From NCBI GenBank assembly GCA_038093975.1, contig JBBPTG010000171.1, positions 1-52,202 on the forward strand: a stretch of 52,202 nucleotides of DNA, written 5' to 3'. Shown piece by piece: positions 5,898 to 52,202 of this stretch. A program made the position numbers and the translations under genes. This DNA is from Chalciporus piperatus. Lineage: Eukaryota; Basidiomycota; Agaricomycetes; Boletales; Boletaceae. Each line of letters opens with the position of its first letter. Position 1 is the stretch's first letter. Under the pieces are notes generated by a model. That model ran no database searches and was not told where the DNA came from. It saw only the letters and a list, made by a program, of their open reading frames with translations.

Positions 5898-6333
5898 ATG
5901 CGGCCATCATTCATTCTGCAGAAAGGCAGATCAGCCTGGAAAGGTTTGGATTTCGTTATTCGAGCGGGAAATTGATGTTGAGTTGCGCTTCAGGCCCATA
6001 CTTTGTTGCTTTCCCAAACCTGAAACAGGCCTTGGAAGACAACATCCCTATACGGACGAACGCGCGGTCCTGCACTATTTTGCCAAACTTTGTCGGGTGA
6101 GTTTACTTCTTGGATGACAACTTTACCGTCTGGACAGTCAACTCTACAGCATTCGGTTCATGGTGCACAATGGAAAGGATTACCTTCCAGTGACGGTTAC
6201 GCAGGATATGATTGGACATAAACTTGGTGAATTCGCCCACACGAAGAAACGATTCACTTACAAGTAAGCACCCTTTCAAATCGTTTATTGAACTCGCAAC
6301 TCAACTTTGAACAGGGCAACAAAGAACCGGTAG
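5898..6333 (+). CDS. RSM19: Mitochondrial small-subunit ribosomal protein uS19m
   Basis: Four short exons, join(5898..5943,5994..6096,6150..6263,6315..6333), 93 residues. Introns are 50, 53, 51 nt with GT...AG ends. Spliced protein opens [19 protein letters not shown] and continues through [20 protein letters not shown] and [10 protein letters not shown] to a basic end TKNR. These match the bacterial and mitochondrial S19 signature (TIFPNMIG, VHNG, VTDEMVGHKLGEF). The protein binds the head of the small mitochondrial ribosomal subunit near 3' rRNA. There is no separate targeting peptide, as is common in this small basic protein. It lies 540 bp upstream of the CLA4-type gene on the same strand. 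Confidence 0.9.
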
Positions 6334-6873
6334 TAAAACTCGTTTTTCTGCCACGGTAGCAGTACGGTAGCCTCTGCCGACCACGCCATTTGCTCACTCT
6401 ATCACTGTTCCCCCGAACTCCCGAATTATCCGTGGTACTACAAAGTTGCCATGTCAGATCACGCCACAGGTCGTTGCGTTTTGATGGATGCTCGGAATAG
6501 AGCTACTGAATGTATAGATTGATATTTTACATCTTGGAGGACGTACAGTGTTAGTTTGAGTCCATAATTGCAGTCGATCATCATCGTTACCGTGGTGATA
6601 AGTTGCGCGGGTAGATCCGAGCTGAGCCAGTGCTAAACGTTTGGTCAAGAGTTCACTGCCTCGCCAGACCCGTCTCATATCGTTGTCCATCTCCCTCACC
6701 AGAACGCCCACGAGCTCGCTGTTCACCACGGCGATCAGCCACCTAGCGCGACGTAATAACCGGCGCTGAACCGAGCTATCGGCCTCGTCATCAGGACCCT
6801 AGTCTGGACAACCGACAAACAACACCCCCCAACGGCTGTCTGCCTCGTGCTTCAATTTTTGAATATTATTACG
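6334..6873. other. Intergenic stretch upstream of CLA4-type gene
   Basis: No gene seen; presumably the kinase promoter. Confidence 0.45.
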
Positions 6874-9779
6874 ATGGGGTTCAACGTCACGGCCACCAAT
6901 TTGACCCCTTCCCGACCTGCTCCACAAGCACCTCAGCGGCGAGGAACAGACCTTCCATCAACACCATCCTCGTACAATAATAGCGCGCTGCAAACCTCGG
7001 GCTACAACACCGTCTTTTCGTCTGGCTCCTCCTACTCTTCAGATTACACAGGTATAGGCGGATCGCCGAATCGATATTCGGACGTAGCGATGAACTCTCA
7101 CATAGTACGATGTGGTATGGTCAGCATGAAGGAGGAGGGCTTTGCCAGCTTCATGTTCTTGAGAAAATGGCTGGTCCTCAAGGAGTCTGTATTGTCTATC
7201 CATAAAACGGAGGTGCGTCGGATTTGCCTTCGATTGGTGCTTTGGGCTCGGCCGATTGATCATACATTACACAGTCCGCACCAGCGCAGAGCATGATCGC
7301 GTTGAACGATATCACCAACATCGAACGAGTTGAATTGAAACCTTACTGTCTGTTGTTGGAAACCAAAGATAAAAGATACAACATCGCACTCAAAAACGAC
7401 GAAGAGCTCTATGGTTGGCAGGACGACATCTACTCTCGTAGTCAGTTGGCTGGTGTTGGCAACCCGACGAACTTTGTGCACAAAGTGCACGTTGGGTTTG
7501 ATCCCATCTCTGGAGCCTTCACGGTGCGTTTACATCTCCCTCGCATTCGAGTTTTACATTCTAATCCTCTCTTTTTTTTCTTATCCGCAGGGCATGCCCG
7601 ATCAATGGAGCAAGTTGCTCACGAAATCTGCCATCACTCGGGAAGACTACGCAAAGGACCCGCAAGCCGTGCTTGACGTCCTCGAGTTCTACACCGATCA
7701 CCAGAAACGCGAATTAGAAGACGCTGGCATGGGAATGGGCATGCCCCCAGTTTCACGGTCCATCTCAGCTACCTCTGGGGGTTCCTCGCTCGCTCCATAC
7801 TCCGTAGATGGTACCCCTCCTCCGCGGTTCAATGCCGGCACTGGTCTGGGTGGTACGACCATCGGAAAACTACCATCTCCACTTGATCGGCCAGCAGGAC
7901 CGAGAGGGCGCCAGGATAGCGCGCCTGCTGATTCGTCCTCTCCAAACGGTCTTTCCTCCACCGCACTCGCGGCTGCCCGCGCTGCCGAGCTCGTCGGCAG
8001 CTCGCATACCCAGCATGCACATACCATCTCATCCGGTCAAGGCAATCGTCCACCGATCCCGCAGATGATCCAGACGTCGGCGTCGCTTCAGCCGAGTAGG
8101 CCTGCTCCGCCTCGTCCGTTGTTGACTCCCACCCGGCCTGCACCTCCTGCTCCGAAGCCGCCTGTACCTGATCATACGCCATCGACGGCAAATTTGCGTG
8201 CGAGGGCGCAGGCGCGTGGTGATCAGGGGATATCGAAGCCTTCTTTGGACAAGGTGTCGTCTACGGATGGGCTCGGCCAGAAGGAACAGGAACAACGTGA
8301 GCAGCGGAGGAGAGAGGAGCGCGAGAGGGAGAGAGAACGAGAAAGAGAAAGAGAACGGGAGAAGGAGCGAGAGCGAGAGCGGGAACGGGAACGGGAACGA
8401 GAGAGGGAGAGGGAGAGGCAACAAGCCAAGGAAGATACCGAGCGCGCTCTCGGTCTTCCCACCAAACCGCTGCCTGTTCCTGTTCCTGTCGGTGCACCAC
8501 CCCCTGTGAAGCCGTTACAACCGGCGAAGAAGAAGGAGTTGCCTGCTCCTGATCTCACGGTTACTGCACCGGAGGGCGAGGATTCGGGTGTTGCTGAGGC
8601 GGCTAAGAAGCTTGAGAAGCCGAAAGAGAAGGAGAAGCGGATCAGTACGATGACGGAGGCTCAGATCATGGATAAACTCCGGTCAGTGGTGTCCGACGAT
8701 GATCCGAAGACGCTATACAGCAAAATTAGGAAGGTCGGCCAGGGGTGAGTTGGCACAATCGTTTCAGTAATTGGTGTTCGTTGATCTGGGGCGATGCAGT
8801 GCATCTGGTCACGTTTACGTCGCGAAGACACTGGCCACGAACAAGAAAGTGGCCATCAAAGAGATGGATCTTTCGCACCAACCACGAAAAGAACTCATCG
8901 TGAATGAAATTCTCGTCATGAAGGAATCTCAACACCCCAATATTGTCAACTTCCTAGAGTCGTATCTCGTCAAAAATACGGAGCTTTGGGTCGTCATGGA
9001 GTATATGGAGGGAGGTGCGCTTACGGATATCATAGAGAACAACACGTTAGAGGAGGATCAAATTTCAAGTATATCTTTCGAGGTGAGATTTCTTGTTGGT
9101 TTCAGGTCTTTGGGTCTCTTGGTCTAATCTCCCCCAATCCAGACTTGCAAGGGCTTGTGTCACTTGCACAACCAATCGATCATTCACCGTGATATCAAGT
9201 CAGACAACGTGCTACTGGACGCGGAGGGGCGGGTCAAGATCAGTGCGTAGTGTTCGCCAATTACCGGTCGCTCTTTACTGACATATCCATATTTTCGCAG
9301 CCGATTTCGGTTTCTGTGCCAAACTCACTGACCAGAAGTCGAAGCGTGCGACCATGGTGGGTACGCCATACTGGATGGCTCCCGAGGTCGTCAAGCAGAA
9401 GGAGTATGGTGCCAAAGTCGATGTTTGGTCGCTCGGTATCATGGCGATCGAAATGATTGAGAACGAGCCACCATATTTGGACGAAGAACCTTTGAAGGCG
9501 CTTTACTTGATCGCTACCAACGGTACACCGACGCTGAAGAAGCCCGAGGCGTTGAGCAAGGAGCTCAAGAGCTTCCTTAGCGTCTGTCTCTGCGTCGATG
9601 TCCGGAGTCGAGCGAACTCGAGCGAGTTGTTGCAGGTCAGTGATACCCCCGAGCCTTTTTCTACGATAGGATGGCTGATCAATCTCCCTTAGCATGATTT
9701 TATGAAGAAGGCATGTGCGCCGTCCGGCCTGGCCCCTCTGCTGCGGTTCAAGAAGAAACAACAAACGTCAGGATCATGA
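6874..9779 (+). CDS. CLA4: PAK/STE20-family Ser/Thr kinase, Cla4 type (PH-CRIB-kinase)
   Basis: Seven exons, join(6874..7212,7275..7523,7591..8744,8800..9082,9143..9242,9301..9635,9693..9779), 848 residues. PH domain about 78-168, CRIB about 176-205 ([10 protein letters not shown] then GMPDQW), proline-rich and then Arg/Glu-repeat linker about 430-475, kinase about 570-830. Kinase landmarks: GQGASG near 579-584, VAIK with Lys601, HRDIKSDN (Asp692), DFG (710-712), GTPYWMAPE (729-737). PH plus CRIB is the diagnostic layout of Cla4-like PAKs, which act under Cdc42/Rac GTPases in polarity, septation and mating. ATG at 6874 is the first true ATG of the frame. All introns splice in phase. Confidence 0.93.
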
Positions 9780-22700: not shown

Positions 22701-22708
22701 TATATATA
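22701..22708 (+). promoter_or_regulatory. TATA box of the pheromone gene
   Basis: TATATATA, preceded by an A-run, lies 116 bp before the ATG at 22817, a fitting distance for a short leader. Confidence 0.55.
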
Positions 22709-22816: not shown

Positions 22817-22936
22817 ATGGACTCCTTCTCCACTATTGCTTTTGCCTCGACCTCTCCCTCCACCGAGACTGAGGTACCACAAGTGCCAGCTGACGAGCAG
22901 CAATCGAGTGGTTTTTCCTATTGTGTCATTGCATGA
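22817..22936 (+). CDS. CaaX mating-pheromone precursor (lipopeptide)
   Basis: Single exon of 39 codons plus stop. It begins MDSF, has an acidic Thr/Glu/Pro middle (TETEVPQVPADEQ) and ends SGFSYCVIA. The CVIA end is a CaaX box, expected to be farnesylated on Cys36, trimmed of VIA and carboxymethylated. The MD[ST]F start, 35-60 residue length, acidic centre and Tyr/Gly/Ser-rich tail are the standard form of Agaricomycete B-locus pheromone precursors. Mature peptide probably starts near the ADEQQ segment, giving roughly 10-12 residues; this is inferred. No receptor gene lies within the window. ATG context ACAAAACAATGG is good. It is too short for routine gene callers. Confidence 0.85.
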   Translation: MDSFSTIAFASTSPSTETEVPQVPADEQQSSGFSYCVIA

Positions 22937-23604
22937 ATGACGAATTGTAAGCTCCCTCCTCCCGTCGTTCAAGTTTCGACTGCTAAACTACAGCTTTCAG
23001 AACCATACCTTCGTCCTTCACAGTGTACCGCAAACGACTTTCATCTACTCACCATCTACATCATATCTTGCACCTTCTTCATCCGCGCTCGCACTTGTAT
23101 CGGCACACATCCATCCATCTGCCAGTGATTGACCTTGCTTAATTCGATTCAATTTCGTTCGTACGTGCTCCAGGAGTACTTATTATTTTGTTGCAAAGAC
23201 GGACGTTGGTAATTATTTGGGGTTGTAATTTATTGGGTTGGTAATCGGGGCCAGGACTCGAGGGACGGCGGCGGTTCATCAGGAGGCTGCTACTGAGAAG
23301 AGACTGGTTATCATTGTGCCATAGCGGTTATAAAACCACCTTATAAACCATTGTATAGACAACCACAGCACGCACTCTCCTTCCTAGTATCTGCGATAAC
23401 TTTCCACCCCTTTTCCTTATATCTGGTTGTTATCTTTGTCTGGGCGCTGGGGCTTATCCGATTCAAATACGATTTTCTATTCTTGTGACTTGCAGTGGAA
23501 CAACTCGGACCTGAGATTAGTTGAACTGATTCACGAACCCACTTGAAGGATATTCTGACCTATTCTGACATACTTGGCCTCCACTAACAGTAACTTGAGG
23601 TGCG
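22937..23604. other. Pheromone 3' flank and F-box gene 5' flank
   Basis: A possible 3' UTR intron (GTAAGC near 22946 to an ACAG near 22995) follows the pheromone stop. Otherwise nothing coding seen. Confidence 0.4.
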
Positions 23605-48715: not shown

Positions 48716-51700
48716 TTATACCTTTTCGGTATCCGGCACGGTATTCAACCAATTGATTTGTCCATCATCCACATGACTCGTTAAGTTGTCATACGGCTGG
48801 AAGAGTGACTCGAATAGACTCCGTGACATGCGAAGGAATCGTGGAGCGGACGGATGTATCTTGTTGAATTCCCTTATTGCATCTTGTGCATTCTTGAGAT
48901 TAGATCTTGGTTCCCATGTCCGATCAGATTCCTCATAGCCTTTCCAGTGCACGAGGTATTTCAGGGTTTTTCCCTGTAAACGAGAATCAACGATGTAATC
49001 CACCTCATATTCATCATCTCTGTCTTCTGTCACAATCACAGGCCCAGGCTTGTCAACGGTTTGCTTCCGTAACCTGTCCTTATATGGTTTGACACGTGAA
49101 ACATTAATGACGGGGTGAATTTTCATGGTACGCGGAAGCTTCAAACGTAGTGCGTTCCGTCCAATCAGGGTTGTGATTTCGTAAGGGCCTAACCATCGTG
49201 GGGAAAGTTTCTTAGATCTCTGCGCCAGGCGGAGATTAGCTGTAGACAACCAGACTTTCTGACCAATTTCGTAAGATGGTGATTCAGAACGATGTTTGTC
49301 GGCTTGCGTCTTCATACGTTTCTGAGCTTCTATTATGTTATCTTTGGTTTCTTTCAACGTGTTGGCGAGTGTGTCAACAAAGTCCGTAGCAGCTGGTGCT
49401 TTAGACGTGTAATTCTCTATTCCCATTCTTGGAGAATATGTGTGCGTGACGTTGAAAGGTGCCTTAGATGTAGAAGCTTGCTTCTTCGAGTTATATGAGA
49501 ATTGCGCAATTGGCAACCAATCAGTCCATTCTTCTTGCTTTTCTGACGTGAATAGGCGGAGATACTGTTGTAGATCTCGATTCATACGTTCAGTTTGTCC
49601 ATCAGTCTGTGGATGAAAGGCGGTGGAGAGTTTGGGCGTAATGCCAAGACGTTTGCATATGTCTTTCATCACTTGAGATGCGAATTGCGGACCTCGATCC
49701 GATATGATGGTTTTAGGAAGTCCATGATGTTTCCACACATGGGTTAGGTAAAGACGAGCAGTGTCGAGAGCGGTGACTGTCTTGTTGCATGGAATGAATT
49801 CGACTTCTTTGGAGAATCTGTCAACTACTACAAGAATAGAATCGAATCCGTTCGAGAGTGGCAGATCGGTAGTGAAATCTGCAGAGATATGTTCCCAGGG
49901 AAGATCCGGAACTTCGAGGGGACGGAGTTTTCCAGAAGGAGCATAGTTTATTCCTTTGAAACGTGCACATCTGTCACAGCGTGAGACGTAGTCTTTCACG
50001 AGCGTAGCCATTCCTGGCCATGTGTAACTGCGCTGTAGCAGTTCAATTGTCTTTTCATATCCGGGGTGTCCAGCAACGGGCGTGTCGTGATGAAGTCGAA
50101 TAATCTCCATGCGGAGATCTTCTTCTTCAGGCACGTATAATCTTCCTTTCTTGTCAATCAGAATCCCATCAGACTCTTCACAAATGCCGTGTTCTTTACA
50201 GAGTTTCATGACTTCTGTTTCACGTATTTTGAAGGTTGCTTTTCTGATTTTATTCTTGATCAGATCGGAATCGGTTGAGAGTTGAACAGTTGACGTGGCA
50301 GCTATTCTGTCCGGAGGTATTACAAGGACAGCTTTGTTATCTGCTTCGATACCAATTGTGTGGTCTTCTCTTCTTGATAAGGCATCGGCTTTTCCCATTT
50401 GGGAACCTGCCTTGTGTAACCATTTGAAATTGAATCGGCTAAGATATTGAGACCAGCGTGCTTGGCGTCGATTTAGATCTTGCCGAGTCATGAAGAACTG
50501 AAGATTCGCGTGATCGTTCCAGATCTCAAACTCGTGCTTAGAACCTTCTAGATAATGTCTCCATTGTTCTAGACTTCTGATAACGCTTAGCATCTCTTTA
50601 TCCGCAATGGGGTAGTTGCGTTCTTCCGGTGACATGGAATGGGAAGAGAATGCGACGGGATGCCATTTGTCTCCTTGTTCTATAGATAGAACAGCACCCG
50701 TGGCATAATTAGATGCGTCCGATTCTAAACGGAAGCGTTTGTCATTGTCTGGGAAAGCGAGTATGGGAGCGGTGATGAATTTCTGTTTCAACGTGTTGAA
50801 GGCGTTTCGTTGTGCGTCTTCCCATGCGAATTTCACATCCTTCTTGGTAAGGTCATTCAAGGGTCTAGCCACTTGGGCGTAATCCTGAATGAAGCGTCGA
50901 TAGAAATTTGCTAACCCAAGGAAGCTTCTGACACCTCTGACATTTGTTGGAGTTGGCCATTCGGTGATTGCCTTGACCTTATCGTCGTCCATTCTGATTC
51001 CCTCGGGAGTAATTGTCATTCCCAAGAATTCTACTTCTTTGGTATGGAAGACACATTTCTCTGGTTTGACGAAAAGGTCATTCTCTTCTAGGCGACGAAG
51101 AACTTCTCTGACTATTTTGGCATGGACAGCAGGGTCGTCGGATTTAGTAAAGATCATGATGTCATCGATGTAGACAACAACGGCGTCTTCCATATCCGAG
51201 AAGATGTCGTTCATCATGGTTTGGAATGTTGCAGGGGAATTGCATAATCCGAAGTACATGACCAAGGGTTCAAAGGCGCCACGGAAGCACACGAATGCGG
51301 CTTTAGATTCATCGCCTTCTTTGATGCGGATGTTGTTGTATCCCCAGCGCAAGTCCATTTTGGTAAACAGTTTTGCGCCTTTCAGTTTATCAACCAATTG
51401 GGAAATGAGGGGTAACGGATAATTGTTTTTCACCGTGTGTTCATTCAGATAACGGTAATCTTGAACCATGCGTTTCTTGCCATCTTTCTTAGGAACGAAG
51501 AACACGGGAGAAGTCTGCTCGGATTTGGAAGGACGAATGTATCCTTTCTTGAGCTGATCATCAATGAATGCGCTGACTTCTTCTTGTTCCGTGACGGATA
51601 GTGGGATAAGACGACCCTTTTTCGGCTTGTAGGTGTCTTTCAAGTCAATTGCGTGATCCCACGGCTTACGGGTTGGCATGCGTTCAGATTCCTTCTTCTT

Positions 51701-52202
51701 GAACAGGTGAATATACTTGTGATATTCTTTTGGAACAAGTTCTTCCGGAGTCTTTTCCGTATTCGGTTCAGGTGCATCCTTCTTTGCGGCATTGATGTGA
51801 CGAAGAGAATTCCGTTCTTCATCATCAAGTTGACGTGCGAACGGTGGTTTATCTCGTAAAACGGAACACGACCAAGGACAACGTGTCATGTGGACCGTTC
51901 CTTTGTTCCAATCTATCTCCGGATTGTGTTGCTTCAGCCATGCGTATCCTAATATCACCTGATTCTTTCCGAGATCAGTGACTTCTGCAATGGCCTTCTC
52001 ACGATGTCCGTTGAAATGAATAATGATTTCCGCACAGTGTGTTATTTGTCCAGCGGAGTTATGTGTTCCGTCCACGTTGTATACCATAAGTGGATGTCTG
52101 AGTTGCACGAGGGGTAATTTGATTTTATCAGCCCATCTCCGATCAACAAAGATAGCGTTAGCTCCTGAATCGAGAAGTGCTTCCGCTCGTGTGAAAGCAG
52201 AG
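48716..52202 (-). CDS. Ty3/gypsy pol polyprotein, partial at the 5' end
   Basis: Frame open to the right edge (first full codon at 52201). Domains in order: aspartic protease (LLDSGAN at the edge), reverse transcriptase (TSPVFFVPKKDGKKRMVQDY, YIDDIMIF), RNase H (LESDASNYATGAVL, DHANLQFF), integrase with HHCC zinc site (GHPGYEKT, CDRCARFKG) and DDE core (ADFTTDLP, SDRGPQFAS, TDGQTERMNRDL), then a chromodomain (VDYIVDSRLQGKTLKYLVHW, KGYEESDRTWEP). About 1161 residues are visible with no stop or shift. Reverse transcription and integration happen in virus-like particles and the nucleus. The chromodomain probably steers integration to modified histones. Gag lies beyond the window. Confidence 0.93.
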   Translation of the reverse strand, partial: SAFTRAEALLDSGANAIFVDRRWADKIKLPLVQLRHPLMVYNVDGTHNSAGQITHCAEIIIHFNGHREKAIAEVTDLGKNQVILGYAWLKQHNPEIDWNKGTVHMTRCPWSCSVLRDKPPFARQLDDEERNSLRHINAAKKDAPEPNTEKTPEELVPKEYHKYIHLFKKKESERMPTRKPWDHAIDLKDTYKPKKGRLIPLSVTEQEEVSAFIDDQLKKGYIRPSKSEQTSPVFFVPKKDGKKRMVQDYRYLNEHTVKNNYPLPLISQLVDKLKGAKLFTKMDLRWGYNNIRIKEGDESKAAFVCFRGAFEPLVMYFGLCNSPATFQTMMNDIFSDMEDAVVVYIDDIMIFTKSDDPAVHAKIVREVLRRLEENDLFVKPEKCVFHTKEVEFLGMTITPEGIRMDDDKVKAITEWPTPTNVRGVRSFLGLANFYRRFIQDYAQVARPLNDLTKKDVKFAWEDAQRNAFNTLKQKFITAPILAFPDNDKRFRLESDASNYATGAVLSIEQGDKWHPVAFSSHSMSPEERNYPIADKEMLSVIRSLEQWRHYLEGSKHEFEIWNDHANLQFFMTRQDLNRRQARWSQYLSRFNFKWLHKAGSQMGKADALSRREDHTIGIEADNKAVLVIPPDRIAATSTVQLSTDSDLIKNKIRKATFKIRETEVMKLCKEHGICEESDGILIDKKGRLYVPEEEDLRMEIIRLHHDTPVAGHPGYEKTIELLQRSYTWPGMATLVKDYVSRCDRCARFKGINYAPSGKLRPLEVPDLPWEHISADFTTDLPLSNGFDSILVVVDRFSKEVEFIPCNKTVTALDTARLYLTHVWKHHGLPKTIISDRGPQFASQVMKDICKRLGITPKLSTAFHPQTDGQTERMNRDLQQYLRLFTSEKQEEWTDWLPIAQFSYNSKKQASTSKAPFNVTHTYSPRMGIENYTSKAPAATDFVDTLANTLKETKDNIIEAQKRMKTQADKHRSESPSYEIGQKVWLSTANLRLAQRSKKLSPRWLGPYEITTLIGRNALRLKLPRTMKIHPVINVSRVKPYKDRLRKQTVDKPGPVIVTEDRDDEYEVDYIVDSRLQGKTLKYLVHWKGYEESDRTWEPRSNLKNAQDAIREFNKIHPSAPRFLRMSRSLFESLFQPYDNLTSHVDDGQINWLNTVPDTEKV

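What the first reader, a model, noticed from the sequence alone, without database searches (positions are those of the whole stretch)
22817..22936. Unannotated CaaX mating-pheromone precursor in a gene-poor stretch
A 39-codon ORF opens MDSF, has an acidic Thr/Glu/Pro middle and ends YCVIA, the CaaX form of Agaricomycete B-locus pheromone precursors. It has its own TATA box at 22701 and a good ATG context. It is below usual ORF length cut-offs and would be missed. No STE3-type receptor is in the window, so it is either the edge of a B mating locus or an orphan, possibly non-mating, pheromone gene.
Basis: partly seen in the sequence, partly recalled or inferred. Interest (0 to 1): 0.86.

Follow-up and report, generated by a model that had tools for sequence, protein, structure and literature searches.

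The report
Dispersed mushroom pheromone-like precursor gene
The small gene looks real: it encodes the precursor of a mushroom lipid-tagged pheromone and belongs to a known but little-studied set of scattered pheromone-like genes that lie away from the pheromone receptor genes and whose job is not known.

Summary
The ORF is confirmed: MDSF...CVIA*, 39 aa, TATA box at 22701, good ATG context; no STE3 match on this 52.2 kb contig. It is one of six related CaaX precursor genes on contigs without STE3 matches (C171, C82 x2, C18 x2, C91): four of the five distinct proteins, used as queries, each return exactly these six places, while the one B-locus precursor tried returns only itself. Relatives occur in Serpula ('fungal mating type pheromone-like peptide'), Hebeloma and Schizophyllum. 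[quoted passage not shown] So 'orphan, possibly non-mating' is favoured. 'Edge of a B locus' is not dead: RSM19 and a CLA4-type PAK, MATB flank genes in Trichaptum, share the contig. Eight of eight receptor-linked genes have ACAATG/ACAAAG sites within 300 bp upstream, none of the six dispersed ones does, though five of these have one within 600 bp. Expression, farnesylation and receptor are untested. A new member of a known kind, tied to an open question: the ligands of orphan STE3 receptors.

The parts
22701..22708 (+). TATA box, 116 bp upstream of the ATG
22817..22936 (+). pheromone precursor ORF, 39 aa, MDSFSTIAFASTSPSTETEVPQVPADEQQSSGFSYCVIA*
   Evidence: PF08015 19.3 bits, cut-off 22; five paralogous places
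22892..22897 (+). residues 26-27 Asp-Glu, predicted N-terminal maturation site (charged pair); inferred
   Evidence: position; DE listed among maturation pairs in PMC8305134 section 15
22898..22924 (+). predicted mature peptide QQSSGFSYC (residues 28-36); inferred
   Evidence: alignments
22922..22933 (+). CaaX box CVIA (farnesylation predicted)
   Evidence: Cys, Val and final Ala are invariant in the five dispersed sequences aligned
22947..22993 (+). [quoted passage not shown] weak branch site
   Evidence: found with the looser pattern (6 of 6 dispersed and 6 of 8 receptor-linked genes; random stretches 17.65%), missed by the stricter pattern
7101..9692 (+). CLA4-type PAK kinase gene (PH + PBD/CRIB + kinase over several exons; span approximate): a MATB flank gene in some species
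6151..6261 (+). exon of a ribosomal protein S19 (RSM19-like) gene, beside the PAK gene: a MATB flank gene in Trichaptum
   Evidence: E 6.3e-13, over the cut-off; reading frame seen

Best explanation
The ORF is a functional precursor gene of a farnesylated peptide of the 'non-mating-type pheromone-like' family of Agaricomycetes. Shown: the ORF, its TATA box, its relatedness to five other dispersed places in this genome and to pheromone-like peptides of other mushrooms, and the absence of a receptor match on its contig. Predicted: a 3'UTR intron. Inferred from what is established for CaaX pheromones: the Cys is farnesylated, VIA is removed, the Cys is carboxymethylated, the N-terminal part is cut at the Asp-Glu pair, and a lipopeptide of about 9-11 residues (QQSSGFSYC-farnesyl-OMe) leaves the cell. 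Inferred, weaker: it is not a mating-type determinant but a signal of the mycelium to itself, read by one of the STE3-like receptors that have no precursor-like gene close by (C236, C32, or the one at 26.3 kb of C92), and its promoter is wired differently from the receptor-linked genes, which carry HMG-type sites close upstream.
For: Closed family: queries from C171, C18 (two genes) and C91 each return the same six places and no receptor-linked gene at E<=10; the one receptor-linked precursor tried as query (C92_c, 1 of 8) returns only itself. Window protein vs dispersed members: 58, 58, 55, 45, 41% identity, z 4.3-6.9 against interior shuffles; vs the eight receptor-linked: 28-54%, z 1.3-3.1. 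Outside relatives: 27 proteins at E<=10 of 162 candidates, among them two Serpula proteins named 'fungal mating type pheromone-like peptide'. A profile of those 27 scores 6 of 6 dispersed genes (22.7-37.9 bits) above 8 of 8 receptor-linked ones (7.3-22.2). No STE3 match on C171, C82, C18 or C91. ACAATG/ACAAAG sites within 300 bp: 8 of 8 receptor-linked (19 sites), 0 of 6 dispersed; 29-36% of random 300-bp stretches have one. Purifying selection in the C82a/C18a pair: coding divergence 2.6% vs 10-12% in flanks, 2 gap runs both in frame vs 17 flank gap runs, none a multiple of three. Published: dispersed, expressed pheromone-like genes with a 3'UTR intron in Agaricus; four similar precursors in Pycnoporus.
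Against: The window core is deviant: none of the other sequences has Phe there (they end SGNSYC, SGGNAYC, GVGYC, SGTGMYC, SGIAYC and the like); its end SSGFSYC also resembles receptor-linked C92_c (SSGFYC), 54% of the shorter length in the global comparison, z 3.0. Its profile score (29.8) is barely above the best of 200 shuffles with fixed ends (29.7), and the 27 profile proteins were gathered with a query in which the window was one row of seven. The tree is weak: it joins the dispersed genes at 83/86 in a group that also holds long-branched C480_c, and the dispersed genes are one side of a branch in 31% of bootstraps. The C18b/C91 pair is not more conserved than its flanks (coding divergence 22%, dN 0.289, dS 0.17). 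The charged pair is not constant (EE, DA, DE, DK, DE in the order). With 600 bp upstream, 5 of 6 dispersed genes do have an HMG-type site, so the promoter difference is one of distance. The stricter intron pattern missed this gene. RSM19 and CLA4 on the contig hint at linkage to MATB. No transcript, peptide or receptor evidence.
Confidence: 0.72

Rival explanations
1. It is a true B-locus mating pheromone at the edge of MATB; the receptors lie beyond the end of the contig.
For: RSM19 (6.2 kb) and CLA4-type PAK (7.1-9.7 kb) are on the contig, both MATB flank genes in Trichaptum (PMC8970355, passages); PAK is about 19 kb from MAT B in Serpula (PMC3564976, passages). The peptide end resembles C92_c. 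The Serpula relatives P0005/P0007 lie on a contig of 2744376 bp, which would fit the scaffold that carries MAT B at 2.70-2.72 Mb and PAK up to 2742489; that identity was not checked.
Against: The sequence groups with five other dispersed places rather than with the eight receptor-linked genes. No STE3 match within 22.8 kb left or 29.3 kb right. No HMG-type site within 300 bp, unlike 8 of 8 receptor-linked genes. RIC1, another MATB flank gene of Trichaptum, is on contig C7, which has no STE3 match; CLA4 is unlinked to matB in Flammulina (passages).
Confidence: 0.15
2. It is a decaying relic of the family: the ORF is open by recent descent but no longer expressed or useful.
For: Deviant core; no second copy found by a DNA search of the genome; one dispersed pair (C18b/C91) is not more conserved than its flanks.
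Against: Full length with the columns that are invariant in the five dispersed proteins (M, D, F, T, T, E, P, G, Y, C, V, A, which includes this one) and a TATA box. Against C82a, 22.5 of 27.2 synonymous sites differ but only 30.5 of 86.8 nonsynonymous ones.
Confidence: 0.11
3. Chance ORF that happens to start MDSF and end CVIA.
For: Loose forms of the motif are expected about 3.4 times per genome; Pfam score under the cut-off.
Against: Five paralogous places retrieved by sequence; 0 of 400 shuffles gave the strict form; the score against C82a was reached by 0 of 300 interior shuffles.
Confidence: 0.02

Closest known systems
[quoted passage not shown]
   Same: In Agaricus: short MDS/AF...CaaX precursors, four per genome, scattered and away from receptors, a charged pair before the core, 3'UTR intron in the ESTs of three of four. 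Cores end in YC.
   Different: The consensus cores given are GGGSGNGAYC (C. cinerea) and GGGSGNNAYC (L. bicolor); here four genes have STSGNSYC, one NGGGGVGYC and the window gene QQSSGFSYC. Only the consensus cores were seen, not the published precursor sequences.
Serpula lacrymans 'fungal mating type pheromone-like peptide' (P0005, P0007)
   Same: 43-aa single-core precursors, MDSFT..., a Pro and a charged pair (DE) before the core, ending SGGNSYCVVA.
   Different: Core SGGNSYC instead of SSGFSYC; their scaffold may be the one with MAT B.
Pycnoporus cinnabarinus presumed non-mating-type precursors (PMC4101180)
   Different: Sequences and genomic places were not in the passages I saw.
Receptor-linked (MATB) pheromone precursors of the same genome (C92, C480)
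   Same: MD/ME start, CaaX end, 3'UTR intron candidate in 6 of 8.
   Different: 40-58 aa against 38-40 aa, beside STE3 genes, HMG-type sites within 300 bp in 8 of 8, lower sequence kinship to the window gene.

Membership tests
Agaricomycete CaaX lipopeptide pheromone precursor | Short precursor with MDS/AF-type start and C-terminal CaaX | tested here: met
   MDSF...CVIA, 39 aa
Agaricomycete CaaX lipopeptide pheromone precursor | Pfam PF08015 over its curated cut-off | tested here: not met
   19.3 bits, cut-off 22, full-length match. In one search only two of the eight receptor-linked precursors pass the cut-off, two more match below it, and neither the other four nor any of the six dispersed genes is listed, so this cut-off does not define the class here.
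Agaricomycete CaaX lipopeptide pheromone precursor | Charged pair about 9-14 residues before the end of the mature peptide | tested here: met
   Asp26-Glu27, then 9 residues to Cys36 (pairs as listed, lengths of 9-14 as)
Agaricomycete CaaX lipopeptide pheromone precursor | Farnesylated, methylated, secreted peptide | not testable with these tools
   needs mass spectrometry
[quoted passage not shown]
   tree support weak
[quoted passage not shown]
   no STE3 match on the 52.2 kb contig
[quoted passage not shown]
   QQSSGFSYC keeps SG..YC but not the Gly run or the Asn
[quoted passage not shown]
   needs crosses or strain sequences
MATB mating pheromone | Adjacent to an STE3 receptor in the B locus | tested here: not met
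   no match within 22.8 kb left or 29.3 kb right; linkage beyond the contig ends unknown
MATB mating pheromone | Lies in conserved MATB flanking order | tested here: inconclusive
   RSM19 and CLA4 present, RIC1 on C7 and a weak DML1-like match on C11

The most novel reading that the evidence does not exclude
The six dispersed genes form a second lipopeptide signalling system with its own receptors: they lack the close HMG-type sites of the mating genes, and their peptides are read by STE3-like receptors that have no precursor gene close by, giving self or developmental signalling. The window gene, with a core unlike the other members seen and a place beside RSM19-CLA4, would be a member that moved to, or never left, the MATB flank and acquired a new specificity.
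Probability: 0.3. Interest if true: 0.75.

Novelty: new member of a known kind. Interest (0 to 1): 0.45.

Why it matters
Non-mating STE3-like receptors are found in many mushrooms, and those of Schizophyllum commune (Brl3, Brl4) are called orphans with self-pheromones suggested as possible ligands, although the same paper also argues that Brl roles may not be tied to pheromones (PMC8161036, passages). Here one genome gives a candidate ligand set (six genes, five distinct proteins) and three receptor genes without a precursor-like gene close by, plus a promoter difference between the two sets of precursors. That makes the ligand question directly testable with synthetic peptides.

Tried and rejected
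Pfam-only recognition was rejected as a yardstick (see the membership test). Its weak C42 hit has no plausible precursor frame by eye. A protein-database search with the mixed alignment found nothing at E<=1 among 65 candidates; the dispersed-only alignment and its extension succeeded. A tree of the 13 distinct precursors is too weak to prove the split. I first took the contig as unrelated to MATB; RSM19 and CLA4 made me withdraw that. RIC1 and DML1 searches failed to bridge C171 and C92. A translated comparison of the window with the other fetched stretches showed only the PAK on C6 and a transposase piece on C236, so no shared flank genes with the other dispersed loci in the few kb held. The species could not be identified. 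The dN/dS of single pairs of 38-aa genes is too noisy for a claim of positive selection in C18b/C91. An earlier count said the C92 receptor at 20.3 kb has no CaaX ORF near; that is wrong, as C92_e lies 2.6 kb upstream, and I count only three receptors without a close one.

Full report
Observation. The ORF at 22817-22936 reads MDSFSTIAFASTSPSTETEVPQVPADEQQSSGFSYCVIA and stops. TATATATA starts at 22701, 116 bp upstream. The window is one whole contig, C171, 52202 bp, of a 35.47 Mb, 484-contig assembly. In 400 dinucleotide shuffles the loose motif came up 0.005 times per window (about 3.4 per genome size), the strict motif never. PF08015 matches at 19.3 bits, under its 22-bit cut-off.

Where the mating receptors are. 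PF02076 matches fall on C92 (six places from 3.9 to 27.3 kb), C480, C236 and C32, none on C171. Scanning C92:1-40000, C480:1-10000, C236:10001-36996, C32:190001-200000, C42:38001-48000 and the window for ORFs with a CaaX-like end listed 26; by eye, on an MD/ME start and a CV or CL end, I took nine as precursors: five on C92, three on C480 and the window gene. The rest, including three on C236, one on C32 and five others in the window, were set aside. C236:1-10000 and the rest of C32 were not scanned. C480_c (core SPWRPATFC) resembles a published Rhizopogon B-locus precursor (...SQYWRPGTFCIIS, passage), and C92 carries an ICMT gene at 28.3-29.1 kb as Boletales B loci do (PMC5473757, passages). 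So C92 and C480 are taken as MATB.

The dispersed family. The window protein as query returns C82:1539, C82:34463, C18:259182, C18:243030 and C91:97351 besides itself. Queries from C18 (both genes) and C91 return the same six and nothing else at E<=10; the search scores only the best candidates of a first look. Receptor-linked C92_c, the only one of eight tried, returns only itself. The five distinct proteins are 38-40 aa, with 12 invariant columns. The two C82 genes encode the same protein and lie in an inverted duplication 97.8% alike over 2.5 kb; the C18:259182 locus is a paralogue about 83% alike by blastn. C171, C82, C18 and C91 have no STE3 match; linkage beyond contig ends is unknown.

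Gene form. With the looser pattern, a candidate intron starts within 110 nt after the stop in 6 of 6 dispersed and 6 of 8 receptor-linked genes; random stretches have one in 17.65%. A stricter branch-site pattern had found one in 5 of 6 and 6 of 8, missing the window gene, whose branch site is weak. In Agaricus, ESTs of three of four pheromone-like genes show a 3'UTR intron (PMC8305134, section 15 read). The dispersed genes are not independent: they form about three lineages.

Promoters. ACAATG or ACAAAG (either strand), chosen beforehand from recalled knowledge of HMG-box pheromone response elements, lies within 300 bp upstream in 8 of 8 receptor-linked genes (19 sites; composition expectation 2.52) and 0 of 6 dispersed ones (expectation 1.59). 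Random 300-bp stretches have at least one in 29-36%. Within 600 bp, 5 of 6 dispersed genes have one. So the receptor-linked genes are enriched close to the start; the dispersed ones merely lack close sites, and 0 of about three lineages is no proof of depletion.

Selection. For C82a against C18a, coding divergence is 2.6% against 10-12% in the flanks, with 2 in-frame gap runs in the coding part and 17 flank gap runs none of which is a multiple of three. For C18b against C91, coding divergence is 22%, no less than the flanks (15-22%), with one in-frame gap; dN 0.289, dS 0.17. The window gene is too far from the others for flank comparison; against C82a it differs at 22.5 of 27.2 synonymous and 30.5 of 86.8 nonsynonymous sites.

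Relatives elsewhere. The alignment of the dispersed proteins found two weak relatives (E 0.36 and 0.68), one from Schizophyllum commune. With these two added as rows, 27 proteins of 162 candidates scored E<=10, 23 of them below 1e-3, the two rows included: S. commune, S. fasciatum, two Serpula proteins named 'fungal mating type pheromone-like peptide', two from Hebeloma, and proteins without an organism name. A profile built from the 27 ranks all six dispersed genes (22.7-37.9 bits) above all eight receptor-linked ones (7.3-22.2). The 27 were gathered with a query in which the window was one row of seven and the other dispersed proteins four, so this is not independent, and the window's score (29.8) is hardly above its best shuffle with fixed ends (29.7).

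The contig's other genes. RSM19-like at 6.2 kb; a PH-PBD-kinase PAK of CLA4 type at 7.1-9.7 kb (that the PH domain marks CLA4 is recalled). In 30 ORF pieces scanned, others were RING/IBR, F-box-like, CNOT11, a THOC3-like WD40 protein, FolB, trehalose phosphatase, pro-kumamolisin pieces, a DDE transposase piece and a Ty3-type polyprotein at 48.7-52.1 kb; not every ORF was scanned. The genome's other PBD genes are on C6 (PBD plus kinase; no PH test made) and C173 (WASP-like by eye). PAK, RSM19, DML1, RIC1 and SNF2 flank MATB in Trichaptum (PMC8970355, passages); PAK is about 19 kb from MAT B in Serpula (PMC3564976, passages); CLA4 is unlinked in Flammulina (PMC3140503, passages). Here RIC1 is on C7 and a weak, below-cut-off DML1-like match on C11. 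So C171 carries part of the MATB flank, and whether it adjoins C92/C480 is open.

Interpretation. [quoted passage not shown] The mechanism (farnesylation, cleavage at Asp26-Glu27, release of a 9-11 residue lipopeptide) is inferred from the class. The receptor is unknown; STE3-like genes without a close precursor-like ORF in the stretches scanned are C236, C32 and the one at 26.3 kb of C92. In S. commune such receptors are called orphans and self-recognition is suggested, though the authors also argue for roles not tied to pheromones (PMC8161036, passages). Earlier statements that such pheromones exist: PMC4101180 (passages), PMC8305134 (passages and section 15), and the Flammulina authors expected further pheromones away from receptors and unlikely to have a mating-type specific role (passages).

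Limits. No transcript, no strain comparison, no species name, and mushroom genomes were not available beyond the protein search and papers.

Noticed in passing
proteins P0002, P0006, P0008-P0020, P0022, P0024-P0027: 20 of 27 outside relatives (two from Hebeloma, the rest without an organism name) carry two pheromone cores in one ORF, each ending YCVVA, the first followed by a linker. An internal CaaX cannot be prenylated before a cut; tandem precursors with CAAX-like repeats are known in red yeasts (PMC3236058, passages); the one search made for mushrooms listed five papers, whose text I did not search for this.
   Followed up: partly
window 6151-9692: RSM19-like and CLA4-type PAK side by side, part of the MATB flank of Trichaptum, while RIC1 lies on another contig.
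   Followed up: partly
G000:C82:1539-1652 and C82:34463-34576: Two pheromone-like genes with the same protein in an inverted duplication about 33 kb apart, 97.8% alike over about 2.5 kb.
   Followed up: partly
G000:C92:7333-8212: STE3-like place whose matches read through one TGA (7333-7578) and three TGA plus one TAG (7754-8212): a receptor pseudogene or introns read through.
   Followed up: no
G000:C92:28254-29087: ICMT gene (pheromone methyltransferase family) beside the receptor cluster, as reported for Boletales.
   Followed up: no
window 48716-52087: 1123-aa open frame with reverse transcriptase, RNase H, integrase and chromodomain: Ty3-type chromodomain retroelement at the contig end.
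   Followed up: no
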